DNA from: Candidatus Latescibacterota bacterium
Lineage (GTDB): Bacteria; Latescibacterota; UBA2968; UBA8231
Assembly (NCBI GenBank): GCA_022819745.1
Contig: JAJEGS010000056.1
Location: forward strand, 1-64,000
Length of the DNA: 64,000 nt
Direction of reading: 5' to 3'
The notes under the pieces are model-generated. The model was given only the letters and a program-made list of their open reading frames with translations, was not told the origin of the DNA and did not search any database. The position numbers were made by a program, and so were the translations under genes. This document shows positions 2 through 23,822 of the stretch, piece by piece (position 1 is the stretch's first letter; the number at the start of each line of letters is the position of its first letter).

Positions 2-109
2 GGCCACATCGACGACTTGACCGATGCCGTCTGCATGTCGATCACCACCCAACATCACGATAACAACCTGATTCAAGGCTTCTTCAAATATGCACAACTC
101 AAACTATAA
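2..109 (+). CDS. C-terminal fragment of an unknown protein (5' end outside window)
   Basis: The frame is open from the first base of the window and stops at TAA 107-109, giving the last 35 residues of a protein that begins to the left. The tail is polar (GHIDDLTDAVCMSITTQHHD, then a short aromatic end FFKYAQLKL). I do not recognise the family. No terminator-like hairpin with a T run follows directly; a small inverted repeat (GTGGAC 141-146 with GTCCAC 156-161) lies 30 bases downstream. The frame is the longest reading at the left edge and has acceptable codon use, but 35 residues are not enough to assign a function. Confidence 0.45.
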   Translation, partial: GHIDDLTDAVCMSITTQHHDNNLIQGFFKYAQLKL

Positions 110-316: not shown

Positions 317-964
317 TCATTTATGCACAACGCGGCACGGTTTCCAGTTCTTAGACCAATGTTCATCGGACTGAACATGGCCTACCCGAACGCTCTTGCA
401 GACATTATACCTAAATTCCTCGGCCGGGAATGCTCGTGCCAACCGTATCACTATCCCTTCTCGTTCGCCACCCAATACAGATGGCTCCGTGTGCGCCTTG
501 CTTACTAAGCTCTGAATTTCGCCAACGGATCGGAACAAGCCCTCAAACAGAATGGGGACTACCGGAATGTCGCGTTCCTGGGCATAATCTACCATCGTCT
601 GGAACGACGAAAAGGTACCATCCCTAAAGCGAAGCGCGAAGGCATAAAAGGTTTCGTTCTCGGCGACAGGTTCATATTCGATGCTGTGTACTCCGTAGAT
701 ATCTTCACCGTAAAGAAACACGTTTGGGTCCGTCACTTTCCAAGCATGATGTTTCTTGACCATCGCCATCCACTTGCCATTCGAAGGAGCGGAGACACTA
801 CGTGCATAAACTTCACCTTTGTGAAGGAGTGTATTGCCCCCATCGACCTTCTCAGTTACGACAATCGGTGATCCTATGAACTTCATCGGGTCGGCAAGAG
901 CTTCGCCGTTCCGGGGAGTTGCTGGCGAGTCTGGCCAATAGGGAGTTTTTGGATACTTCAACAT
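317..964 (-). CDS. Small RNA ligase-family nucleotidyltransferase
   Basis: A 215-residue member of the covalent nucleotidyltransferase superfamily, closest in motif pattern to RNA ligases (RNA_ligase, PF09414). Motif I is TEKVDGGNT with the predicted AMP-accepting lysine at K39. Motif III is LYGEDIYGVHSIEY (E87), IIIa FYAFALRF (about 106-113), motif IV EGIVIR (169-174) and motif V CKSVR (K190). All catalytic motifs appear present, so the enzyme should be active in sealing nicked or broken RNA by ATP-dependent adenylylation. At 215 residues it lacks the C-terminal domain of T4 Rnl2 (about 330 residues). It lies 43 bp downstream of the PIN nuclease gene on the same strand, as the last gene of a three-gene cassette. 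That context suggests repair or modification of RNA ends made by the nuclease (inference). mRNA capping enzymes share the motifs but are an unlikely alternative here. Confidence 0.8.
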   Translation of the reverse strand: MLKYPKTPYWPDSPATPRNGEALADPMKFIGSPIVVTEKVDGGNTLLHKGEVYARSVSAPSNGKWMAMVKKHHAWKVTDPNVFLYGEDIYGVHSIEYEPVAENETFYAFALRFRDGTFSSFQTMVDYAQERDIPVVPILFEGLFRSVGEIQSLVSKAHTEPSVLGGEREGIVIRLARAFPAEEFRYNVCKSVRVGHVQSDEHWSKNWKPCRVVHK

Positions 965-1007
965 AGGACACTATGATATCAAGGAATATGCCTATCTGCG
1001 CTCCGGA

Positions 1008-1481
1008 TTATTTGGAGGCATGCTGTGGGCAAAGCTGTTGTACCGTCACTCCCAAACTCTGCGTCAATGCCTCTTGCTCGCTCCAATCGCTGTCCGTCGC
1101 GTTCAGAATGGTAGCCTGTGCAACCAAGGCAGCTGCTAGAAACTTGCGATCGGATTTGTCCAAATCGTTTTTCGGTAGCTCTGTGAAGCCGAGGCGATCA
1201 TCGCTACATGGCGTAATAGAAACTCTACGCACTCGAGTTTTGTCGTACCCATGATCGAAAAGATGCTTGAAGAACTTGTCTCCCACCCCCGGAGCACCTG
1301 CGAAACTTAGGCTTTCTTTGTATTCGTCGAATATAAGGTTTTTGTCGTCAACTACAATGACCTGCTGACGGCAAATGTTCTCCAGTTTTTCTATACACGC
1401 CAATTGGCACGGGTGCCTCGCGTGCGTGTTTCTTCCGTTCGCCGCTATGGCAACGTTGGTGTCTACGACAAAGGATGTCAT
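1008..1481 (-). CDS. PIN-domain ribonuclease-like protein
   Basis: 157 residues with the acidic pattern of PIN-domain endoribonucleases. FVVDTNVAI gives D7 and N9 at the N-terminus, DEY gives E53, KSDRKFLAAAL gives D111, and NATDSDW gives D130/D132. PIN proteins use such a cluster of acidic residues to hold metal and cut single-stranded RNA, and many are VapC-type toxins. No small antitoxin gene lies next to it. Instead its ATG (1481-1479) overlaps the TGA of the upstream AAA ATPase in a TGATG arrangement, so the two are probably translationally coupled. An RNA ligase follows 43 bp downstream. ATPase plus nuclease pairing is typical of anti-phage systems; the added ligase is unusual. Substrate unknown. 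Confidence 0.75.
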   Translation of the reverse strand: MTSFVVDTNVAIAANGRNTHARHPCQLACIEKLENICRQQVIVVDDKNLIFDEYKESLSFAGAPGVGDKFFKHLFDHGYDKTRVRRVSITPCSDDRLGFTELPKNDLDKSDRKFLAAALVAQATILNATDSDWSEQEALTQSLGVTVQQLCPQHASK

Positions 1482-2836
1482 CAGGCTTGGATCTGTCTTT
1501 CTAGTGACGCTTTGCTAATAGCAGCAATCTCGCCCATTTCATCTCCAAAGAATTTATCCGGCCAGTTCTCTATACCACCCCACTTGTTCAGCTTGAGGTC
1601 GTTCAACTCGGCTGCACCGCGTTTTGTATTAACGAAATAGAGTTTCAAATCCGACGACGACATGCTGCCTTCGGCCACGCGACGCTGAAAGCGCCGCAGT
1701 AGATGTTCGCTGTGACTTTCTACGATGATCTGCACTTGGCGCCTCTTAGCCACCGCGAGCATTACATCCGCCATCCCGCTTTGAACGGACGGATGCAGAT
1801 GAATCTCAGGCTGCTCCATCAGCACAATCGAGCCTTCCGGCACATAATACAGGAGGACCAAAACGGGCAGGATTTGGGAGATTCCAAAACCGACATCCGT
1901 CAGCAGCGTTTCGGAGCTGGTGCGATCCCTTCGTACTCGTACTTGGTAGAGGTTTGACCTAGGTGCGATTTCTTTAATTTGGAACGAATCGATCAGGCCT
2001 AGTTCTCGCAACCAATAGGCAATCATTTCCTGAAACTTCATGTATCTCTTGCGTAGTGCGAGGTTGCGCGTTTCGCCTTGCGCGGTAGCCGCCAGAATGG
2101 CATCGACGGTGCGTTCCCCGCGTGGCCCCACGTCAGTGGGTCTGGCCCCGGACCAGTGGTACTCGCGCTGCGGATGCTCCCGGAGAGGACCAAGATAGAA
2201 TATCCTGTCCATCAAAGCTTCGTACTCGGCTTCGAACAGACTTAGAAAGCCCGTGTTTTGAAAGTAGGTACGGGCCTGATCGGGGAAAAGGTGAGTCTTG
2301 ACCGGGCCGGGCAATGCCGAGCCTCGTCCTTGATTCCGAACGAACGATAGCGGTTTGCGCCCCTCTGACCTGAGCTCGAACCTACTGGATTCGTCTGCCC
2401 TTGGTTCGATAGCGAAAACGGTGTCGTCAAATCTATATTTCACATAACGCGCCGACGGATGTGTACCTTTCCATTCTACCCGAGAGCTTTCTTGCAGACT
2501 TTCTCCCTTGAAGCGCACTTCACGAGAGCCGCTCGGGTCGTTGACCCTGAGAGGCTTCGGCAGCATCCAATCTAGCGTCCAATCAATGTACAATGCTAGA
2601 TTGCCTTGATGTACCAAGGCTTCGTAATTTCCCAGATTTACCAGATTGGTCGGGCCTCCGAAGTCCAGCACGAGACCCCGATCCGTCGCATTCTTCGTCT
2701 GCTTGAGCAAGAGCAGAAACTGAAGCAAGCTGCTCTTGCCCGAACTGTTTGTGCCGAAAAGGCCGGTGACCTTCCCTAAAGCTATCTGTAACTCACGCCA
2801 TGCTTTGAAGTTAGTGAGATCAAGAGATTTCAACAT
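1481..2836 (-). CDS. AAA ATPase, SMC/OLD-like, with C-terminal DUF3696
   Basis: 451 residues of the ABC/SMC-like AAA class (AAA_15/AAA_21). The N-terminal NFKAWRELQIALGKVTGLFG leads into Walker A GTNSSGKS (28-35). Later come an ABC-type signature region (LLTDVGFGISQILPVL), Walker B with its acidic pair in IVLMEQPEIHLHPSVQ, and a histidine switch IIVESHSEHLLRRF. The C-terminus (LNKWGGIENWPDKFFGDEM) matches the DUF3696 tail. Such ATPases act as sensors or regulators paired with nucleases in defence modules. The ATG at 2836 has a good ribosome site (AAGGAGAG, 6 nt away). It is first in the ATPase-PIN-RNA ligase operon. The gene is more AT-rich than the genes from 4 kb onward, which suggests acquisition. 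No TOPRIM nuclease domain is fused to it, unlike OLD proteins. Confidence 0.85.
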   Translation of the reverse strand: MLKSLDLTNFKAWRELQIALGKVTGLFGTNSSGKSSLLQFLLLLKQTKNATDRGLVLDFGGPTNLVNLGNYEALVHQGNLALYIDWTLDWMLPKPLRVNDPSGSREVRFKGESLQESSRVEWKGTHPSARYVKYRFDDTVFAIEPRADESSRFELRSEGRKPLSFVRNQGRGSALPGPVKTHLFPDQARTYFQNTGFLSLFEAEYEALMDRIFYLGPLREHPQREYHWSGARPTDVGPRGERTVDAILAATAQGETRNLALRKRYMKFQEMIAYWLRELGLIDSFQIKEIAPRSNLYQVRVRRDRTSSETLLTDVGFGISQILPVLVLLYYVPEGSIVLMEQPEIHLHPSVQSGMADVMLAVAKRRQVQIIVESHSEHLLRRFQRRVAEGSMSSSDLKLYFVNTKRGAAELNDLKLNKWGGIENWPDKFFGDEMGEIAAISKASLERQIQA

Positions 2837-3312: not shown

Positions 3313-3388
<76 letters not shown>

Positions 3389-4260: not shown

Positions 4261-6402
4261 CTACCAAGCGAACAGGAAGTTGCCGGTGTTTCCCGTGAAG
4301 TAGTCGATGATGAGCCAGAGGCCGAGGGTCAGCATCTGACCGGCGATCATCCCGAGGAAAAACCCCTGAGTACGTTGGTAGAAGTTGACGCCGCCGTAGC
4401 GGAGGATGATTACCTTGATGAACCAAGCGACGAACACGCTGGTAATGATGTGAGGCATCAGGTCCACAGCCGCGACTGGGAAGCCGATAGGGTGGAGGGG
4501 CCACCAAGGCAGGCGATGGCGCACCCAGTACAGCAGGGCCATGATGCCGCCGCCGCCGAACAGGAAGCCGATGCCCGGCCAGTAGATGCCGGTAGGTTCG
4601 AGGTTGCGCACGGCGCTGTCGTAGGCGACCGCTGGTCCCGCCTTGAAGAACCAATAATCGAGGTTGACGCCGCCGTAGCGGTAGGCGACGTGGAAGATCA
4701 TCCAGAACGAGCCCAACGTCCCGATCAGCAGGGCCAAGATGAGAGCGAGGAAGACCAGCCGTCGGCTGCGCGCATCCATGTCCTCAATCAGCTTGAGGGC
4801 GTTGGTGCAGGTCGCCATGGCGAACGCCCGGACCTCGCCGGCCCAGATGTAGGCCATAGACATGTTGAACACGCCGGTGGGACCGACGAGCGATGAACCG
4901 AGACCCATGACGACGAAGTCGGGGGCGTTGACGGGCGTCCGCAGCGTCGCCAGCCCGGCTTCGGCGATGATCCGGGTGATGCCGATAAAGATCGTCATGG
5001 CTAGGACGATGAAGAAGAAGGAGACCCACAGCGGTGTGCCCATGAGCCACAGCCACAGGGTCATGACCGCGATCCCCCCGAAGGTGCCGATCACGGCGCT
5101 GCGGTAGGAGAGGATTTCGTCCCGATCGTCGACGTGGGGCGCTCGGCCGAGGGCCTTGAGCCAGACCGCCTTCAGATGCTCGCGGGCCGTCCACAGCACT
5201 CCTGCGACCAACACCAGCAGGGCACCTAGCCCCTCGTAGCCGACTAAGGGTGCGTCGGGAACGCCGTGGAAGTGTACCTGCTCCGATTTGACCCCGGCGA
5301 TTGCCAGCGCGCTCTTCTGGAGCCGGCCGAGCAGGTAGAACACCCACACGCTGCCCGATATCCTCGTGTCGATGAGGTAGGTGAAGCCAGTCAGAGCGAA
5401 GTTGACCTTGCCGCCGAGGTATGGTATCGACAGGTGCATGGGCACCATGGGAATGGAGGGATAGTAGTTCGACATGGCCTTCAGGCTGCCGACGATGAAC
5501 GGGATGGCCATGCCAATGCACACGGACCGACGCTTGAAGAAACCGTTCACCAGCCCCTTCTCGTCCTCGCCGCGGATCATGGCCAGACCGACTTGCGCGA
5601 TGGGATAGCTCAGCCGCTCCCGCTCCATCCACTGACGCCGCAGAATTACGGCGATTGAGATCATGCAGACGTACAGCGCCAGCAGGAAGACGGCCCACCA
5701 CATCAACGGCTCGACCCAGGTGCCGTAGGGGATGCTCTGGCCGGGCGCGGAAATGCCCTCGTAAAACAGGGTGTTCTTGGCCCCGTCGTCGACTAGGATG
5801 TTGTGCTCGGGGAAGTGGGGGAAGAGCTTCTCTCGCCATTGATTCTCCGGCGAGGCGTAGTAGAAGATGGCGGTGAGAGAGGGCAGGATCAGCTCGGTCA
5901 GGCCCATCGTACACACGGCCGAGACCATCGCTAGCATGGCGTACACCATGATCAGTTCGGCGCGGTTGAGGGCCAAGCTGCGGCCGGACCAGACCAGTGG
6001 CACGTTGACGAGGGCGCAAATCAGCGCGAAGGTGGAGAAGATCAGGCCGGGCGAATGCACCTCGACATTACTAAACGGCCAGTAGGCGTAGAGCCAAGCC
6101 GTCCCTACCGCGAGGGCGAAAGCGAGGGCTAGGTCCCTGCTGCGTGCGGCCAGCTTGAAGGCTAGGTTGAGAATCCCGATCAGTACGACGAAGACGAAGA
6201 TGGCCCCTGGGGTGCTGATGTCCGCGGCCACGTAGGCACCCTTGATGACCATGTTGCTGTAGGGGGCGCTGATGGCGAGGAAGAAGCTCAGGCCGCCCCC
6301 CACGAAGAACCCCCGCCACGTTAGGCGGTGGCGCGATTCGAGGAGGGGCTCGGAGCGCGACCGCAGGTACTGGAGGTAGAGCGGGGGGATTTTCTGTTTC
6401 AC
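4261..6402 (-). CDS. DUF6785/DUF6784-type polytopic membrane protein
   Basis: 713 residues with about 14-16 hydrophobic segments, for example GGLSFFLAISAPYS, IFVFVVLIGILNLAF, WAVFLLALYVCMISIAVIL and FLALILALLIGTLGSFW. The layout and conserved stretches (WVEPLMWWAVFLL; RRQWMERERLSYPIAQ) match my recollection of the DUF6785/DUF6784 family found in Latescibacteria, Poribacteria and Planctomycetes. That family resembles oligopeptide-transporter-like proteins, but its substrate is unknown. The frame begins with GTG at 6402, preceded by only a weak ribosome site. It lies between the PpiC lipoprotein gene and the alanine-rich secreted protein, at the end of the surface-protein gene run. A transporter serving the same locus is an inference. 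Confidence 0.75.
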   Translation of the reverse strand: MKQKIPPLYLQYLRSRSEPLLESRHRLTWRGFFVGGGLSFFLAISAPYSNMVIKGAYVAADISTPGAIFVFVVLIGILNLAFKLAARSRDLALAFALAVGTAWLYAYWPFSNVEVHSPGLIFSTFALICALVNVPLVWSGRSLALNRAELIMVYAMLAMVSAVCTMGLTELILPSLTAIFYYASPENQWREKLFPHFPEHNILVDDGAKNTLFYEGISAPGQSIPYGTWVEPLMWWAVFLLALYVCMISIAVILRRQWMERERLSYPIAQVGLAMIRGEDEKGLVNGFFKRRSVCIGMAIPFIVGSLKAMSNYYPSIPMVPMHLSIPYLGGKVNFALTGFTYLIDTRISGSVWVFYLLGRLQKSALAIAGVKSEQVHFHGVPDAPLVGYEGLGALLVLVAGVLWTAREHLKAVWLKALGRAPHVDDRDEILSYRSAVIGTFGGIAVMTLWLWLMGTPLWVSFFFIVLAMTIFIGITRIIAEAGLATLRTPVNAPDFVVMGLGSSLVGPTGVFNMSMAYIWAGEVRAFAMATCTNALKLIEDMDARSRRLVFLALILALLIGTLGSFWMIFHVAYRYGGVNLDYWFFKAGPAVAYDSAVRNLEPTGIYWPGIGFLFGGGGIMALLYWVRHRLPWWPLHPIGFPVAAVDLMPHIITSVFVAWFIKVIILRYGGVNFYQRTQGFFLGMIAGQMLTLGLWLIIDYFTGNTGNFLFAW

Positions 6403-6508
6403 GGGAGGCGCGTCAGCGGGTGAGGGCGGAGACCGGCCTCCCGCCCGAACGGACCCGAGGTTGGAGCGATGATGTAGGCGCGCTCGCGGTCCGCCTCGGT
6501 CGATCGCA

Positions 6509-8200
6509 TCACTGTTCCTTTTGTACCAGGGTTCTCAGGTTCTCTTCGTGGATCTTGATTTGGGGCTCGTACTGACGCCGCAGTTCGCCGAGGAATTGGA
6601 AGAAGGCCGCATCGCGCTTCCGGCGCAGGGCCATGGCCCAGGCCCGAGTCGCGACCTCGGCGAAGGGCTTGGGATCGCTTCCGAGGGTCGATTCGACGAC
6701 CCTGAACACGGAATAATAGCGGTTTGCTGACGCCGCACCACCGGGGGCCGACACCTTCACTTCGATGGGGCCCAGCAGGTCGCCCGGCGCGGCCCCCTGT
6801 GCGGCCTCGAACAGGGCCTCGTGCGCTTCTTTCTGATACCAATGAAGGTGGAATCGCCCGCTGTCTGGTATGGCCATGCGCCGCAGGGTGTGCTGCTGGG
6901 CTAGGTCCCGCAGATTCTCACCGCGCTCAATCCGGTCCCGGAGCGCGACCGCGTCTTCGCGTGTGGCGACCAAAATTTCGTCTAGCGTCAGGGCCTCTTG
7001 GGGAACGAATGTCTGTAGATTTTGGGCATAGAAGCGCCGCGCCTCGTCCTCATCTACTTGCACGTCGCCGGTCACCTTCTTTCTAATGACCGCCAGCAGG
7101 CGTTCCTCTTCTCTGGCTTGGTGCCAGGCGACCATCTCCGGCTCGCGGTCGATTCCGGCATTGCGAGCGGCCTGCGCGGCCAGTGCGCGGGGGACTAGGA
7201 CGGAATCGGCAAACCAGCGCATCTGCGCCAGCACATCTCCCGCGAACTCCCGGTAGTTCTCTCGGGCCGAGTCCACGAACTGTCCCACTGTAATGGTGCC
7301 GCCGTCGAATTCGTAGAGTACCGTACCGCGTTCCGCCTCGGAGAACGCGTGTCCCTCGCTCTCCAGCCGCGCGGCGAGCAGCTCGAAACCGTCTGCTCGG
7401 GGACGCAGGTTCAGCGCATCCCGCAGTTCCCGGCCAAGCTCCATCGATCGCAGGCCGGCCTTCTCCCGGTGGAGTTCGGTCTCCACTATACTCCGCACCC
7501 GTTCGAGGGAAACAGGTGCTTCGTCCATGACTTGGAACACGCCGTAGGTGCCGCCCGGCAGGGGTATGGGTTCGGAGATCTGACCCTTCGCGAGCGGAAA
7601 GACCTTTTCCTGCATGATGGGCAGGGGCATCTGGTCCTTGGTGGCGTACCCCATGAACCGGCCGCCCTGCTCGGCCGTCGCGCGGTGGGTCGAGCGCTGC
7701 CGCGCCAACTCCCCAAAGTCGGCACCACCCTGTAACAGGCGCACGATCTCTTCGGCCTCTTCCCGGCTCTCGACCTCGATCTTGCCACCCATGACCGCGC
7801 GGTTGCGTCCAGTTTTCAGGTAGTGGTCGTGGATTTCCTGCTCTTCGAGCGCGATCTTCGCGTCCACTTCCCGGGCGAAGAATTCATTCACCAGCCGCTC
7901 GGTCCATTCGCGCTCCAGCTTGCGGCGCATGTCGCGGTCGCGGTCCCAGCCCCGCGCTGCCGCTTCCCGAATGAGGAGCTCCTTGTCGATCAGGGCCTGC
8001 AGATGCTGCCGTCGTCCTTCGATACCCGCCTCCTTGGCCCGCAGACTTTCGACTAGGCGTTCCTCAAATCGGTGCAACTGCGCGGCGTGAATGCGGGTGT
8101 CTCCTACCTCGGCTAGCACCGGGCCTTGAGCGTCTTCCTCGCAGCCCGACAGGACGATGCCCAAGGCTAAGGCGAGTGGCGCAGGTTTTAGTTTTATCAT
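6509..8200 (-). CDS. Lipoprotein peptidyl-prolyl isomerase, PpiC/SurA-like, two rotamase regions
   Basis: 563 residues. The leader LALALGIVLSGCEED has a clean lipobox with Cys20, so the protein should be anchored to a membrane on the periplasmic side. The N-terminal region resembles the SurA chaperone helix (RLVESLRAKEAGIEGRRQHL, ALIDKELLIREAAARG). A parvulin-like rotamase region follows at about 138-240 (GADFGELARQRSTHRATAEQ, then GRFMGYATKDQMPLPI, and YGVFQVMDEAPVS). A second, more diverged one lies at about 410-520 (ENLRDLAQQHTLRRMAIPDS). Such proteins help outer-membrane and secreted proteins fold. Its ATG overlaps the stop of the large surface-protein gene upstream (ATGA), so it is coupled to its likely clients. 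Confidence 0.88.
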   Translation of the reverse strand: MIKLKPAPLALALGIVLSGCEEDAQGPVLAEVGDTRIHAAQLHRFEERLVESLRAKEAGIEGRRQHLQALIDKELLIREAAARGWDRDRDMRRKLEREWTERLVNEFFAREVDAKIALEEQEIHDHYLKTGRNRAVMGGKIEVESREEAEEIVRLLQGGADFGELARQRSTHRATAEQGGRFMGYATKDQMPLPIMQEKVFPLAKGQISEPIPLPGGTYGVFQVMDEAPVSLERVRSIVETELHREKAGLRSMELGRELRDALNLRPRADGFELLAARLESEGHAFSEAERGTVLYEFDGGTITVGQFVDSARENYREFAGDVLAQMRWFADSVLVPRALAAQAARNAGIDREPEMVAWHQAREEERLLAVIRKKVTGDVQVDEDEARRFYAQNLQTFVPQEALTLDEILVATREDAVALRDRIERGENLRDLAQQHTLRRMAIPDSGRFHLHWYQKEAHEALFEAAQGAAPGDLLGPIEVKVSAPGGAASANRYYSVFRVVESTLGSDPKPFAEVATRAWAMALRRKRDAAFFQFLGELRRQYEPQIKIHEENLRTLVQKEQ

Positions 8201-11085
8201 TCTCTCAATCCGGCATATACAGTGAGATAGGACAGGCCGCTCGTCTCCGTCCGGTCTTGCTGGTCGAACGAGTCGATCTTCCGGCGGTCCACCCGGATCC
8301 CAATCGTTGACATGAGCCGGTATCCCACATAGCTGGTGGCATTGGTTAGCTGTAGGGCGAGGGATAGCTCATTGAAATCGCCGGTGGGATCGCCCCGGTT
8401 CAGGCCAGCCACCGGGTCGTCTGCGAACGCCACCTCCTGCTGCGCGAAATCGCGGAAGATGACCTGCTCCAGGCCGATGATCACCGTGCTGTGGCTCAGC
8501 ACCGGGATGTCCAGCCGCAGGGAGGCCATACCGGCCCACTCCTTGCGCTCGAATACCCGGTCGTTTAGGAGCCACTCCGTGTTGAACGGCGTGTCGTCTA
8601 GGAACAGTTCGTGCTTGACGCGCGGACGGAGCTGGATGCCGCTGCTTAGGGGATAAAGCCAAGCTAGCTTGTTGATCAAGCCGAGCCGCCGGGTGTGCTG
8701 CGAGATTTTCCGACCCTTCCGGTCCACGGTGAGCTGCTCCCGCTGCCGCAGCACCTCGTAGATCAGCTTATTCCCGGAGTTGACTCCGACATTGCCCCGA
8801 CGCTCGAAGGCCAGCGACAGTTTGTTGACCCAAGTATTGGGCAGGCCCAGCGGATCCGGGATCGGCGTCATGCCCTCGTCCCTGAACCTTCCGTGCAGCC
8901 ATTGGAAGAGGTCGTCGGCGATGTCGTCCTCGACTCGCTTCAACATGTTATAGACCGTCAGCTCGCCCACGTTGGGATAGCTGCGCTCGAACGCGAAAAG
9001 GGCATAGCTGCTCACATTGGTCTCGCCGGTTGAGGGGCGGCGCACGCGCTGGTGGCCCGCGGTGAGCTTGGCACTCGGCGCGATCCACGCACCGCCGTAC
9101 ACGTTGAATCCGCGGCGGTCGCGCTTGTACGGGTAGTCGGGTTCGTTGTCGTTTTCAAAACGGTCTCCCCAGCCGTTGTTGTTCATGTCGAGGCCGAAGA
9201 GATACTCGGGCCGATCCACGCTGTAGCGCAGGAAGGGCTCGGCGTAGTCGGGCACATTGTTGGGTCGCACTCGGGTGTTGTTCTGGTTGAAATCGGAGAT
9301 AAAATCGTGGTTCTCGTCGAGGCCGGGAAAAACCGCCTCGTCCGCGTACCCCTCGAACACGCGAATGCTGTTCCGTTCGTCGGGTGTCCGGCCGTCGTCG
9401 AATCTGCGCTTTTGGTCGTTTTTGCGATCGTTGTCGTCGTTGTCGTCGACGAAGTCGTAGAGGTAGTTGGAATGGGCCTGCGGCGTGTCCGCGTAGTTGA
9501 CCCGACCCGCTGAGTCTAGGAATCGCATGGTGGTCGAGTACTGGGCGTCCATGCCGAAGGCCTCGCCGAAGAGGTAGTACGGATAGAAATCCCTGGCCAC
9601 GTTGACCATCCACGCTTCGGCGGCGGGATTGCCCCGAATGCCCGATGAGGTGGTGTGGGTGGTCTGGCTTACGTCGGGGTACTTGCGGTACTGGTGGTTC
9701 ACATTGAACTCGCCGTAGAGCCTGAACCCGGCCAGATCGTCGGCCTCCACCGTAAAGCCGAGGATCTGGGTGGCGGTGGGCAGTCCGTAGTCAAAGACCA
9801 CGGCACCTAGATTGGAATGGTCCTGCACATTCCCCGGTGCCCGCACCATGGTCCTGAACACCGGGCGCGGTTCGAAGATGGCGTTGTCGGTGTGCTGGTC
9901 GGAAGTGACTTCCACCTTGTAGTCGTTGCTCAGGACCAGCCGGAACCGGACTTTGCTGATGTTGTTGACTGCATCGGCGAGGGACACCACCGTTTCCAAG
10001 TCATCGAGGACTGCCGGGTCCGGATCCGCCAGCACGTAGTCCAACCGGATCCGCCCCAGTTCGCCGCCGCCTTCGGCTATTAGGGAGCCATCCCGGGGGA
10101 TGCCGCCCGAAATTCTAGGATGGAAGCCGATCTGGCTGCCCACTAGTACCGTGTCCAGCTCTCCTATCCGGGTCGTAATCTCGATCTCGTGGGCGAACAG
10201 GGCGGGACCGCCTTCGCCGTCTGCCGGGGAATCGTCGGTAATCCGCACGGTGATCCGGTTGATGCGTGCGCCCGACTGGTGAGAGCTCAGCCTGCCGGTC
10301 AAAGGACTCCCGTCGAAGGGCACAGTCGAGCTCCGACCGTTGTGCGCGTTCACGAAGGTGCCGCCGATGCGCACAAAGTCGGCCAAATTCCCGACGACTC
10401 GGAGACCGGTGAAATTGGTGAATTCGTCGATGAAACTGCGCGCTGGCAGGAACAGCGGGACATTGATTCTGGACATGAGGGCTGTGGCCGAGACATAATC
10501 CGACATATAGTCGAATTGGACCCCGTTGAAGGCCGTCTTGCGAAAGGTCATGGGTGTCAGGGTCGTGCCGATCTCGTCGCCGATGCTCACGCGGAAGTGA
10601 TGTTGCCCCTTGGCGTCTGCAGAAACTACGAGGGAGCTGAAAAGGTCCTTGTAGCGGTCGGTCTTGTGGAGCAGGTTCCCCTCAGAAGTCCGGGGCTGGC
10701 TCTGCTGCCAGTCGTAGATCAGCCAGCCTCGGGTCAGGAGCCGGCCGTAGAGGTCGTAGTGATTGTCGCCCTCCTGATCGGTGGATAGGTAGCGCAGGTA
10801 GCGCTCGTGGGCGTAGTTGGTTCCCGCCTCCCATTGCCAGCGGTAGTGGTTGGCGACCTCTTGGGGCATGTACCATTTCTTGAGGGACGGAACGAAAGAG
10901 TCCGTGCGCAGGCTGGGAGCCGCCGAGTAGTAGATCGCCCGGCCGCTCTCGCGGATTCCGAGGCGATTCCCGTAGTCCGACTGGGCTGCGCCGGGCGCGA
11001 CGGCCAACGCGACTGCGAGCCCGACGAGGATGAGGATTCGGGACTTGGGCCGCACGGTCCGCACTTGGGGGGACTTGTTCATCAC
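8197..11085 (-). CDS. Large surface/outer-membrane protein, paralogue A
   Basis: 962 residues, or 961 if the ATG at 11082 rather than GTG at 11085 is used. The leader RILILVGLAVALAVAPGAAQ looks like a Sec signal with cleavage after AQ. The protein parallels the next gene upstream along its length: KKWYMPQEVANHYRWQWEAG, DLYGRLLTRGWLIYDWQQSQ and GLDMNNNGWGDRFENDNEPD all have counterparts there. Asp/Asn-rich stretches (DDNDDNDRKNDQ; DENHDFISDFNQNN) look like calcium-binding loops. The C-terminal third has alternating polar/hydrophobic strands ending in LTVYAGLRE, which suits a beta-barrel anchored in the outer membrane, but I do not know the family. It overlaps both neighbours by 4 bp. Confidence 0.75.
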   Translation of the reverse strand: MMNKSPQVRTVRPKSRILILVGLAVALAVAPGAAQSDYGNRLGIRESGRAIYYSAAPSLRTDSFVPSLKKWYMPQEVANHYRWQWEAGTNYAHERYLRYLSTDQEGDNHYDLYGRLLTRGWLIYDWQQSQPRTSEGNLLHKTDRYKDLFSSLVVSADAKGQHHFRVSIGDEIGTTLTPMTFRKTAFNGVQFDYMSDYVSATALMSRINVPLFLPARSFIDEFTNFTGLRVVGNLADFVRIGGTFVNAHNGRSSTVPFDGSPLTGRLSSHQSGARINRITVRITDDSPADGEGGPALFAHEIEITTRIGELDTVLVGSQIGFHPRISGGIPRDGSLIAEGGGELGRIRLDYVLADPDPAVLDDLETVVSLADAVNNISKVRFRLVLSNDYKVEVTSDQHTDNAIFEPRPVFRTMVRAPGNVQDHSNLGAVVFDYGLPTATQILGFTVEADDLAGFRLYGEFNVNHQYRKYPDVSQTTHTTSSGIRGNPAAEAWMVNVARDFYPYYLFGEAFGMDAQYSTTMRFLDSAGRVNYADTPQAHSNYLYDFVDDNDDNDRKNDQKRRFDDGRTPDERNSIRVFEGYADEAVFPGLDENHDFISDFNQNNTRVRPNNVPDYAEPFLRYSVDRPEYLFGLDMNNNGWGDRFENDNEPDYPYKRDRRGFNVYGGAWIAPSAKLTAGHQRVRRPSTGETNVSSYALFAFERSYPNVGELTVYNMLKRVEDDIADDLFQWLHGRFRDEGMTPIPDPLGLPNTWVNKLSLAFERRGNVGVNSGNKLIYEVLRQREQLTVDRKGRKISQHTRRLGLINKLAWLYPLSSGIQLRPRVKHELFLDDTPFNTEWLLNDRVFERKEWAGMASLRLDIPVLSHSTVIIGLEQVIFRDFAQQEVAFADDPVAGLNRGDPTGDFNELSLALQLTNATSYVGYRLMSTIGIRVDRRKIDSFDQQDRTETSGLSYLTVYAGLRE

Positions 11086-21887: not shown

Positions 21888-23426
21888 CTATGGGGCCAGC
21901 CGTGCCATGCGTGCCTCTAGCGCTGCAAGCTGACGGGTATCTCCCCGCCAGTGGGCGACCGCCAGCCGGTATGCCCGCAGTGCCGCATCCACTTGGCCCG
22001 TCTGTTCGTATGCCTTGCCGAGCGCGTAGTGGGCCTTCGCGCTGGTGGCGTCCAACCTCTTCACGGCCTTGAACACCGCGATCGCCCGGTCGTAGGCTTG
22101 CTGGCGGAGGTAGAACTGTCCGAGGCTCAGGCGAGGCTCGACCCAATCCGGTCGGTGGCGAATCGCTGCCTTGTAGGACTGCTCGGCCTGATCTAGGCGA
22201 CCCTGAAGTAGCCCCACGTTGCCTAGGGCGTGGTGCGCCTTGGCAAAAGTCGTGTCTACTTGTAGGGCCTGATGGAAAGACCGACGAGCTTGGTCCAGAC
22301 GCCCTCCCCGGGCCTCGACATAACCGATGGTGAAGTGGGCCTCGCAGGCCTCGCGCTGATCCGGGGCTTGGGCGATCACCTGACGGGCCAGTGCCACCGC
22401 TTCGTCTAGGTCGCCCTGATTCAGGTGGGCGTGGCTCAATCCTGAGAGGGCTCTGACATGCTCGGGCTGGCGCTCTAGGACCGCCCGGTACATGCCGATG
22501 GCCTGGTTCCACCGGCCGAGCTCGCCGTAGGAGCGCCCCGCCGCCAGATAGGAGTCTAGGTCGCCGACGGCCTGATTTACCTGTTTTTCCACGGCTTGCA
22601 CTTGGGCGGCTCGCTGGTTCAGCTCGGCAAAGCGGTCGAGCAGTATCTGAGCTTGTTCCTCGCGCCCTTGGGCAGAGTAGAGATTGGCCAGACTGTAGTA
22701 TGCCTCGGGATAGGCCGGGTCGATCTCAAGAGCCCGGCGCAGCATTCCCTCGGCCTCCTCGTAGCGCTCCGGGTAGGTATAGAGTACCCCGAGTTCCCGG
22801 TGGGCCTCCTTGTTGTCGGGATCGAACCTGACCGCGCGTGTCAATAGCTCCGCGGATTCTGCCCGGCGTCCCTGCATCCGGAGGAGCCGGCCCAAGGCAC
22901 ACAGCGCCTCAGCATCGGTCGAATCGGCCGCCACGGCCCGCACCAGGGCCTCTTCGGCTCGTTCGTACGCCCCTTGCTCTTGGTGCAGACCGGCCAGAAG
23001 ACGGTACGAAGGAGCTGTGCCCGGATCGATGCGCACGGCCTCTTCCAACAGGGCGACCGCCTCCCGGTGGCGTTTCATTTCTCCGTAGGCCACGGCCAGA
23101 TTGTGGTAGGCCAGAACAAGGCTCGAATCTAGGCGAATGGCGGTCAGATACGCGGTTTCAGCCGAATTCCTGCGGCCCAGTTTCATGTAGGCCGTGGCCA
23201 GATGGCAGTGGGCTACCGCGGAGAGGGAGTCTAGGGTCACTGCCTGCTGATACGCGGCGAGTGCGTCGCGGTACCGGGCTTGGCGGAAATAGGTGTGCCC
23301 GAGCGTGAGGAGCCGGTTTCTCTCTGGGTTCGGTGCTGGTGATTCGGGTGCCTGACACGCGCCCAGCCAGATTGCCAACAGGGCAGCGGCGGTGCGGCGA
23401 AACACAACTGCGTACGTCAGATGCAT
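21888..23426 (-). CDS. TPR-repeat lipoprotein
   Basis: 512 residues from ATG 23426. It begins MHLTYAVVFRRTAAALLAIW and then LGACQAPESPAP, a lipoprotein signal with the acylated cysteine at about residue 24. The 70 residues of open frame upstream have no signal and are rejected. The rest is at least ten tetratricopeptide repeats with the W/L-G-Y-A-F-A-P pattern (AAYQQAVTLDSLSAVAHCHL; AYLTAIRLDSSLVLAYHNLA; MLRRALEIDPAYPEAYYSLA; SFHQALQVDTTFAKAHHALG). Such lipoproteins scaffold envelope complexes. It is divergent from the hypothetical gene at 23823 and precedes the CBM9-like gene by 138 bp. Its partners are probably the surface proteins of the same gene run (inference). Confidence 0.85.
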   Translation of the reverse strand: MHLTYAVVFRRTAAALLAIWLGACQAPESPAPNPERNRLLTLGHTYFRQARYRDALAAYQQAVTLDSLSAVAHCHLATAYMKLGRRNSAETAYLTAIRLDSSLVLAYHNLAVAYGEMKRHREAVALLEEAVRIDPGTAPSYRLLAGLHQEQGAYERAEEALVRAVAADSTDAEALCALGRLLRMQGRRAESAELLTRAVRFDPDNKEAHRELGVLYTYPERYEEAEGMLRRALEIDPAYPEAYYSLANLYSAQGREEQAQILLDRFAELNQRAAQVQAVEKQVNQAVGDLDSYLAAGRSYGELGRWNQAIGMYRAVLERQPEHVRALSGLSHAHLNQGDLDEAVALARQVIAQAPDQREACEAHFTIGYVEARGGRLDQARRSFHQALQVDTTFAKAHHALGNVGLLQGRLDQAEQSYKAAIRHRPDWVEPRLSLGQFYLRQQAYDRAIAVFKAVKRLDATSAKAHYALGKAYEQTGQVDAALRAYRLAVAHWRGDTRQLAALEARMARLAP

Positions 23427-23822
23427 CGCGCAGTTTTCCGTTGGATCACGGGGTTGACCGGGGGCGACGTGGCGTGAGGAGGGCTGGAGTCGAGGGAAGA
23501 GAATTGCCACCCGTGGACGTCTTCGCGTCGCCGACCGAATATAAGCCATCGGCACCAGCCCCAACAACTTGAGTGCTGGTGTCAGCAGGGCCGTTTCGTC
23601 GGCCTTGTTGACCAAGGCACCCGCTGGCTCGGTCAATCTGGCCTCGCCAGTTTAGGCGATTGACGCGATTGACGCGTCTGGTGCCGATCTATAGTATGGC
23701 AGATAGGCACCCGCGCGGGGCAGGGACGACGCCTAAGACAACCCCAGCAGGCCGCGGCGACACCCCGAGATGGAGCAGAGCGTGACTTGGCAGGAACGAG
23801 CAGCAGGCGGATCTGAAGCGGC
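23427..23822. other. Divergent intergenic region
   Basis: 396 bp between the TPR lipoprotein (minus) and the gene at 23823 (plus). It should hold both promoters. It contains a short tandem repeat of ATTGACGCG (two copies near 23659-23676) and the promoter candidate at 23669-23697. No supported gene. Confidence 0.5.
23669..23697 (+). promoter_or_regulatory. Possible sigma70-type promoter for the gene at 23823
   Basis: TTGACG at 23669-23674 is followed by TAGTAT at 23692-23697 (17-bp spacing); an overlapping TATAGT at 23690-23695 gives 15 bp. It points toward the plus-strand gene about 125 bp downstream. The match is by eye only. Confidence 0.35.

What the first reader, a model, noticed from the sequence alone, without database searches (positions are those of the whole stretch)
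317..2836. AAA ATPase - PIN nuclease - RNA ligase cassette beside tRNA-Thr
Seen: three same-strand genes, with ATPase and PIN gene overlapping as TGATG and a full-motif RNA ligase 43 bp behind. The block is more AT-rich than its neighbours and lies next to a tRNA gene. Established: SMC/OLD-like ATPases pair with nucleases in anti-phage systems (PARIS, OLD, Gabija), and PIN domains cut RNA, often tRNA. Inference: the ATPase senses phage or another trigger and unleashes an RNA cut, while the ligase reseals host RNA or limits the damage, a built-in break-and-repair design. I do not recall this exact trio as a named system.
Basis: partly seen in the sequence, partly recalled or inferred. Interest (0 to 1): 0.78.

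Follow-up and report, generated by a model that had tools for sequence, protein, structure and literature searches.

The report
Defence operon with built-in RNA ligase
A bacterial gene trio pairs a sensor-like ATPase and an RNA-cutting enzyme, already listed as a candidate anti-virus pair, with an RNA ligase that recurs in the same place across many bacteria, which suggests a defence able to mend the RNA that it cuts.

Summary
The trio is real: ATPase (1481-2836) and PIN (1008-1481) overlap as TGATG; an RNA ligase (317-964) follows after 43 bp. The ATPase-PIN pair is not new: it matches PADLOC candidate system HEC-03 (700 and 222 bits). The ligase matches no PADLOC model, yet is a recurrent third gene. 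In the 80 nearest ATPase loci the PIN always follows; of 77 with room behind it, 54 have the ligase next. In 247 genomes of one phylum, the five strong of ten ligase hits lie 23-41 bp behind a PIN. Distances of the three proteins correlate (r 0.76-0.93) and catalytic residues are kept. Some relatives sit inside BREX or type III restriction operons. The ligase core resembles nick-sealing Rnl2 and Naegleria ligases; stand-alone jumbo-phage ligases are its nearest kin outside. Most likely the ATPase gates a PIN RNase whose 5'-phosphate/3'-OH cuts the ligase reseals; trigger, target and repair are inferred. Twenty of 23 pair-only genomes give no ligase hit, so it is an accessory. The tRNA neighbour is not conserved.

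The parts
1481..2836 (-). ATPase (451 aa), AAA_15/AAA_21 with C-terminal DUF3696; PADLOC HEC-03B; presumed sensor and gate
   Evidence: Pfam AAA_15 92.3 bits, DUF3696 30.9 bits; HEC-03B 700.1 bits; N30, S31, G33, K34 in 80 of 80 and E341, P343, E344 in 81 of 81 sequences
1008..1481 (-). PIN-domain nuclease (157 aa), PADLOC HEC-03A; presumed RNase effector
317..964 (-). ATP-dependent RNA ligase (215 aa), nucleotidyltransferase core only, presumed repair component
1479..1483 (-). TGATG overlap of ATPase stop and PIN start (likely translational coupling)
   Evidence: overlapping junction in 63 of 80 related loci (starts chosen by alignment)
965..1007 (-). 43-bp spacer between PIN stop and ligase start
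   Evidence: PIN-ligase spacing at most 100 bp in 54 of 54 trio loci
3313..3388 (+). tRNA-Thr(TGT), neighbour only; not judged part of the system
   Evidence: not conserved in relatives; no repeat of its 3' end in the window

Best explanation
This is a HEC-03-type defence operon with a third gene. Shown: the ATPase-PIN pair and its recurrent, co-inherited RNA ligase. Inferred: the DUF3696 ATPase, related to the ATPases of PARIS, Septu and OLD systems, holds the PIN RNase inactive and frees or activates it on infection or another trigger. The PIN, a metal-dependent RNase of the VapC type, nicks a structured host or phage RNA, most likely tRNA, and leaves 5'-phosphate and 3'-OH ends. The ligase, a minimal Rnl2/Rnl5-like enzyme, takes exactly those ends and reseals the RNA, so that leaky or finished responses can be undone. 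It lowers the cost of a useful but dangerous nuclease rather than being needed for defence itself.
For: PADLOC HEC-03A/B match. PIN behind the ATPase in 80 of 80 loci, ligase next in 54 of 77 with room. Draw of 247 genomes: the 5 ligase places with E under 1e-60 all lie 23-41 bp from a PIN match; 5 genomes hold both a ligase and a PIN hit against 0.29 expected from 9 and 8 genomes, hypergeometric P 9e-7. Ligase-ATPase distance correlation 0.90 (19 of 22 window-clade trios) and 0.87 (29 of 33 second-clade trios), 0 of 500 permutations as high. PIN/ligase ORFs overlap in 29 of 33 loci of the second clade. Catalytic residues kept in all three proteins. BREX operon with the trio inside: DUF6079, PglX, ATPase, PIN, ligase, BrxHI, PglZ in L085, and the trio between PglX and BrxH in L060, L067, L085 and L088. 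Pair between type III Mod and Res in L032. Trio annotated on Azotobacter, Aeromonas and Rhodococcus plasmids. Outside the BREX-type loci no neighbour gene recurs in more than five of 80 loci, and none of ten recurrent-group members annotated is an RNA-end kinase or phosphatase, as expected if PIN ends need no healing. ATP-dependent ligases of this class need 5'-P and 3'-OH ends (passages of PMC7824862). PIN end chemistry is recalled, not from a call.
Against: No activity, trigger or RNA target is shown. 23 of 77 loci lack the ligase, and 20 of those 23 genomes give no ligase-profile hit anywhere (most are MAGs, completeness not reported), so the pair stands without it. In the 247-genome draw 5 of 10 ligase places have no PIN (the weaker ones), 3 of 9 PIN places have no ligase, and the ligase profile was itself built from trio ligases, which favours trio hits. 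The ligase lacks the extra domains of Rnl2 and Naegleria ligase, so strong sealing is not certain. In this window ten flanking genes show no clear defence protein (one weak PrimPol-like hit), and among 60 neighbours of mostly window-clade loci no PADLOC family matches more than 2.
Confidence: 0.5

Rival explanations
1. Toxin-antitoxin-like or selfish maintenance module: the ATPase restrains the PIN and the ligase is a second safeguard; phage defence is at best secondary.
For: The PIN fold is closest to VapC toxins; the trio is carried on plasmids typed as conjugative; decayed remnants in the window's nearest genus keep a full-length ligase while the ATPase is broken or unrecognisable and the PIN lost or shortened.
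Against: Embedding inside BREX and type III restriction operons fits defence; no gene recurs in more than five loci outside BREX-type loci, though genes under 80 aa were not called.
Confidence: 0.17
2. The ligase does not undo PIN cuts but repairs RNA damaged by something else (phage or rival nucleases); it shares the operon because both answer the same attack.
For: Its nearest relatives outside trios are stand-alone jumbo-phage ligases, one of them beside an RlaP RNA-repair gene, that is, general RNA repair.
Against: The strong ligase hits in the 247-genome draw are all beside the PIN (profile built from trio ligases); distances correlate with PIN and ATPase.
Confidence: 0.13
3. The ligase is part of the attack: it 5'-adenylates PIN-cut ends, or joins them to wrong partners, so that the target cannot be restored by host or phage enzymes.
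For: The protein is a nucleotidyltransferase core without the flanking domains of Rnl2 or Naegleria ligase (215 aa); an archaeal Rnl3 is described as strong in adenylation and weak in ligation (PMC12153264, part 2 read).
Against: The motif residues, including K190 of motif V, are invariant where not gapped; jumbo phages keep relatives with the same residues, which suits repair better.
Confidence: 0.1
4. The PIN acts on DNA or on a non-tRNA such as rRNA or tmRNA, and the tRNA idea is wrong.
For: PIN folds serve several substrates (recalled); the tRNA gene beside the window's operon is not conserved.
Against: An RNA ligase partner points to RNA.
Confidence: 0.1

Closest known systems
HEC-03 (PADLOC 'Hma-embedded candidate' system 3: HEC-03A + HEC-03B)
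   Same: Both proteins match nearly the full length of the models (222.5 and 700.1 bits), adjacent.
   Different: The ligase matches no model of PADLOC-DB 2.0.0 at E up to 1. No defence operon was found around the window copy on its right side; the left side lies outside the window.
PARIS (AriA-AriB)
   Same: ATPase of a related kind (AriA model 100 bits; AriA chain 8v46) plus a separate metal-dependent nuclease; AriB leaves 3'-OH tRNA ends (passages of PMC12409363).
   Different: Nuclease is Toprim in PARIS, PIN here; no ligase in PARIS (recalled).
Septu / retron Ec78 PtuA-PtuB
   Same: The ATPase profile matches PtuA chains in the PDB.
   Different: PtuB is an HNH nuclease (recalled); no ligase.
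Menshen (NsnABC)
   Same: NsnB is the second-best PADLOC family for the ATPase (208.9 bits). That NsnB belongs to Menshen is recalled.
   Different: PIN and ligase match no Nsn model at E up to 1.
HARP (PIN-type RNase P) with Rnl3 RNA ligase
   Same: A PIN nuclease gene often co-localised with an ATP-dependent RNA ligase gene (PMC12153264, parts 1 and 2 of 3 read).
   Different: Other ligase family (PF18330 there, PF09414 here), co-linear in only 10 instances there, and a word search of the paper finds no ATPase.
Rnl2 / Rnl5 nick-sealing RNA ligases (T4 Rnl2, Naegleria RNA ligase)
   Same: Core fold and motif residues.
   Different: Lacks their additional domains; 215 aa.
Bacterial Pnkp1-Rnl-Hen1 RNA repair
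   Same: RNA repair linked to immunity (start of abstract in a listing, PMC4411300).
   Different: A three-protein complex with end-healing partners; no such partner recurs here.

Membership tests
HEC-03 (PADLOC) | HEC-03A and HEC-03B proteins present and adjacent | tested here: met
   E 7e-67 and 3.6e-211 over nearly full length; adjacent
HEC-03 (PADLOC) | Embedded in an Hma or other defence operon (origin of the name, passage of PMC12988326) | tested here: inconclusive
   Not seen in ten genes of the window's right flank; left flank is outside the window; some relatives are embedded in BREX or type III restriction
HEC-03 (PADLOC) | Antiviral activity | not testable with these tools
   needs phage challenge
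PARIS | AriB Toprim nuclease partner | tested here: not met
   partner is a PIN
OLD / Gabija | ATPase fused to a Toprim nuclease domain | tested here: not met
   Pfam shows AAA-type and P-loop families, DUF3696 and a marginal DUF2813 match, no Toprim family at E up to 1
Menshen | NsnA and NsnC partners | tested here: not met
   no Nsn match for PIN or ligase at E up to 1
VapBC toxin-antitoxin | PIN toxin fold with conserved acidic residues | tested here: met
VapBC toxin-antitoxin | small VapB-type antitoxin gene directly beside the PIN | tested here: not met
   direct neighbours are the overlapping ATPase and the ligase 43 bp away
Rnl2/Rnl5-type RNA ligase | nucleotidyltransferase motifs I, III, IIIa, IV, V (motif names recalled) | tested here: met
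   K39-D41-G42, E87, F109, E169, K190
Rnl2/Rnl5-type RNA ligase | accessory domain (C-terminal in Rnl2, N-terminal in Naegleria ligase; recalled) | tested here: not met
   protein ends at 215 aa; the matches align residues 1 to about 200 to the core
HARP + Rnl3 | Rnl3 family ligase (PF18330) | tested here: not met
   only PF09414 found at E up to 1
BREX | PglX, PglZ, BrxC-type genes around the trio | tested here: inconclusive
   not in ten right-flank genes of the window, left side not visible; met in relatives such as L085

The most novel reading that the evidence does not exclude
An immune operon with its own undo function: the ATPase-PIN pair breaks RNA to stop a phage and the partner ligase reseals host RNA, making an otherwise suicidal response reversible. 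Jumbo phages carry the sister ligase as counter-defence, and the operon acquired an RNA ligase for this slot twice, in the window's clade from the jumbo-phage branch.
Probability: 0.25. Interest if true: 0.87.

Novelty: new variant of a known kind. Interest (0 to 1): 0.64.

Why it matters
As far as I recall, RNA-cutting defences are mostly treated as one-way, and RNA ligases in this conflict are known chiefly on the phage side. A defence operon that carries a matching ligase would be a reversible response, testable with two point mutations. It also proposes a third gene for a catalogued candidate (HEC-03), gives a fold to its PIN protein, which the plasmid records seen call hypothetical and for which none of 120 listed relatives has a precomputed Pfam domain, and predicts that jumbo-phage ligases of the sister branch counter this system.

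Tried and rejected
tRNA-linked island: rejected as a general feature; tRNA or tmRNA genes in 6 of 80 loci, no repeat of the tRNA 3' end in the window; the tRNA target cannot be inferred from the neighbour.

Another third gene in ligase-less loci: none recurs in more than two of them behind the PIN except a ~650-aa gene in related Methylovulum-type loci (four, five), which is CcmF, with CcmE and a cytochrome c assembly gene on the other side: a housekeeping operon into which the pair was inserted.

A hidden fourth component: 409 neighbour genes (up to three a side, at least 80 aa, crude gene calls) of 80 loci were clustered. Two groups recur in more than five loci: PglX/BrxH and related helicases (12 loci) and PglZ (7 loci, all with PglX; one member annotated). 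A TOTE primase-helicase recurs in four.

Two separate recruitments of the ligase: the careful tree separates window-clade ligases plus phage ligases from second-clade ligases (100/100). The AU test rejects one clade of all trio ligases when three stand-alone bacterial rows are included (p 8e-5) but not against phage rows alone (p 0.148). So this is suggested, not shown. 23 of 90 rows (long, fragmentary, distant or near-duplicate) were dropped before the careful tree; the quick tree of all 90 also nests window-clade ligases among phage ligases.

E. coli copy for the bench: none found with the Pantoea trio DNA (distant mode).

Literature: searches for HEC-03, RNA ligase with PIN domain, anti-phage and AAA ATPase (0 papers), Menshen with NsnB, RNA ligase with phage defense, PIN, ATPase, operon and tRNA repair (9 papers), guilt-by-embedding (12 papers), DUF3696, RNA ligase and phage defence (39 papers, 20 listed), RNA ligase with PIN domain (45 papers, 25 listed) and RNA ligase with BREX, embedded and PIN (3 papers). 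No listing or passage that I saw describes this trio; most listed papers were not opened. Passages seen: PMC13356809, PMC12988326, PMC11090510, PMC13092281, PMC7824862, PMC12409363; PMC8565338 abstract and outline only. The survey of RNA repair in conflicts (Burroughs and Aravind 2016) and the HEC preprint are not held, so the trio may be described there.
Full report
OBSERVATION. ATPase and PIN overlap as TGATG and the PIN and ligase are 43 bp apart. A tRNA-Thr gene lies at 3313-3388 on the other strand. The block has 0.49-0.55 GC against 0.58-0.65 from about 4.25 to 12 kb. The window's assembly is not held; a Bryobacterales MAG contig has a 100 percent identical ATPase but ends inside the PIN.

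DOES THE TRIO RECUR. A search of one genome per species, which finds close relatives only, returned 114 relatives of the ATPase, of which the best 80 were kept. A PIN match lies behind the ATPase in all 80, in four of them 83-259 bp away. Three loci end too early to judge the ligase (L011, L033, L055). Of the other 77, 54 have the ligase as next gene and 23 do not. Genes overlap at the ATPase-PIN junction in 63 of 80; PIN-ligase spacing is at most 100 bp in 54 of 54, and overlapping in 29 of 33 loci of the second clade (starts were chosen by alignment, and L018's large overlap is a miscalled or shifted PIN frame). On the ATPase tree (quick method) ligase presence needs 5 changes, against 20.2 on average in shuffles; it occurs in both deep clades. 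By the record titles the loci come from many phyla.

A DRAW NOT SELECTED BY THE ATPASE. Among 247 genomes drawn evenly from the phylum of the nearest held genome, the ligase profile gave 10 places in 9 genomes, not counting the second half of one split match, and the PIN profile 9 places in 8 genomes. The five ligase places with E under 1e-60 all lie 23-41 bp from a PIN match; the five weaker ones have no PIN match beside them. Of the nine PIN places, five have the ligase, one is cut by its contig end and three do not. Five shared genomes compare with 0.29 expected (P 9e-7). Two cautions: the ligase profile was built from trio ligases, so strong hits lean towards trios; and three of the PIN places lie on contigs that, by length and content, are also among the 80 loci (G225 = L020, G268 = L057, G001:C203 = L011). 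Among 41 close relatives (G001 and G020 are also in the 247) the ligase has six places: two full trios, one PIN-ligase cut by a contig end, one PIN-ligase without a recognisable ATPase, one remnant beside ATPase fragments, and one more distant copy without a PIN.

CO-INHERITANCE AND CONSTRAINT. Pairwise distances correlate: window clade, 19 of 22 trios, ATPase-ligase 0.90, PIN-ligase 0.76, ATPase-PIN 0.78; second clade, 29 of 33 trios, 0.87, 0.90, 0.93; 0 of 500 permutations as high in each case (fragmentary or near-duplicate rows left out). Ligase K39, D41, G42 and E87 are kept in 55 of 55, E169 in 53 of 53, K190 in 52 of 52; PIN D7 in 75 of 77, D45 and E53 in 80 of 80, D108, D111 and D130 in 79 of 80; ATPase K34 in 80 of 80, E341 and E344 in 81 of 81 (gaps set aside).

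DEFENCE CONTEXT. Of 131 nearest neighbours listed, 119 were scanned with PADLOC. Among the 60 of the first set, mostly window-clade loci, no family matched more than 2; in the second set of 59, BrxH models matched up to 6 and PglX 5. In the second clade the trio sits in BREX operons: a PglX match lies upstream in 10 of 80 loci, ending within 2 bp of the ATPase start in seven (one of these a fragment), and a BrxH match with E under 1e-30 downstream in six; two further loci have weaker helicase matches. In L085 the order is DUF6079, PglX, ATPase, PIN, ligase, BrxHI, PglZ. A ligase-less pair lies between type III Mod and Res genes (L032) and another behind Mod (L046). A TOTE-type primase-helicase recurs in four loci. 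Named plasmids of Azotobacter, Aeromonas and Rhodococcus carry DUF3696 protein, hypothetical protein and 'RNA ligase family protein' in this order. In the window itself ten flanking genes show no clear defence protein. Outside the BREX-type loci no neighbour gene recurs in more than five of 80 loci.

PHAGE RELATIVES OF THE LIGASE. The ligase occurs in 25 viral-contig loci, ten of them at 45-50 percent identity (some near-identical to each other), eight of these ten on contigs over 200 kb. In 24 of the 25 no ATPase or PIN match lies in the fetched stretch; the other (L136) is a trio. It also matches 24 phage records, all over 230 kb. One phage copy lies beside an RlaP RNA-repair gene. All catalytic residues checked are kept in the 24 phage rows examined except one F109 change. 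Window-clade ligases group with the phage ligases and not with second-clade trio ligases (100/100). The AU test rejects one clade of all trio ligases if stand-alone bacterial rows are included (p 8e-5), but not against the phage rows alone (p 0.148). Two recruitments are therefore suggested only.

AGAINST THE READING. Of 23 genomes with a ligase-less pair, 20 give no hit to the ligase profile (most are MAGs and their completeness is not reported); one of the other three holds a second, full trio (L066). The ligase is thus no obligate antitoxin. Trigger, target, cut chemistry and sealing were not tested; PIN end chemistry is recalled. The minimal ligase might adenylate ends rather than seal.

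MECHANISM. Most likely: the ATPase gates the PIN, as AriA gates AriB (recalled); the PIN nicks a structured RNA leaving 5'-phosphate and 3'-OH; the ligase, which needs those ends (passages of PMC7824862), reseals them. No healing enzyme is a regular neighbour of the trio, in line with this. HARP-Rnl3 (PMC12153264, two of three parts read) is a precedent for a PIN-ligase pair with another ligase family.

VERDICT. A real and recurrent three-gene operon: a known candidate pair plus a co-inherited RNA ligase that the defence library searched does not list. New variant of a known kind; high interest if the ligase proves to reverse the effector's cut.

Noticed in passing
G001:C40:10150-11502 (L101): The nearest held genome carries a second ATPase-PIN pair (57 percent identical ATPase); no ligase-profile hit was found in that genome.
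   Followed up: partly
L118 (G004), 4692-6166: A same-genus genome keeps a full-length ligase next to ATPase fragments; no PIN match is left.
   Followed up: partly
L172 (G008), 1169-2445: PIN (start region missing in the match) and ligase without a recognisable ATPase: probably a decaying trio.
   Followed up: partly
L015, L040, L044, L045, L051: In Methylovulum-type genomes the ligase-less pair lies at the same place in a cytochrome c maturation operon, between CcmE and CcmF (annotated in L044; homologous neighbours in the others).
   Followed up: partly
L110 (G092), 6187-8397: A more distant stand-alone PF09414-type ligase is followed by an AAA_33 kinase-like gene, which looks like another RNA repair arrangement.
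   Followed up: no
L057, L065, L069: tmRNA genes lie about 0.9, 4.6 and 1.4 kb upstream of the ATPase, which hints at tmRNA integration sites.
   Followed up: no
L113 (G225), 6001-6561: A second ligase match covering only the later part of the profile, close to the trio ligase of the same genome: probably a fragment of a duplicate.
   Followed up: no
L083:5871-8246 and three other loci: A TOTE conflict-system primase-helicase lies near the operon in four loci.
   Followed up: no
window 21888-23636: A 582-aa protein with a weak PrimPol-like PADLOC match (42 bits).
   Followed up: no
window 2-109: An open frame on the + strand runs in from the left edge and stops at 109; it could be the tail of a mobile-element gene, not tested.
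   Followed up: no
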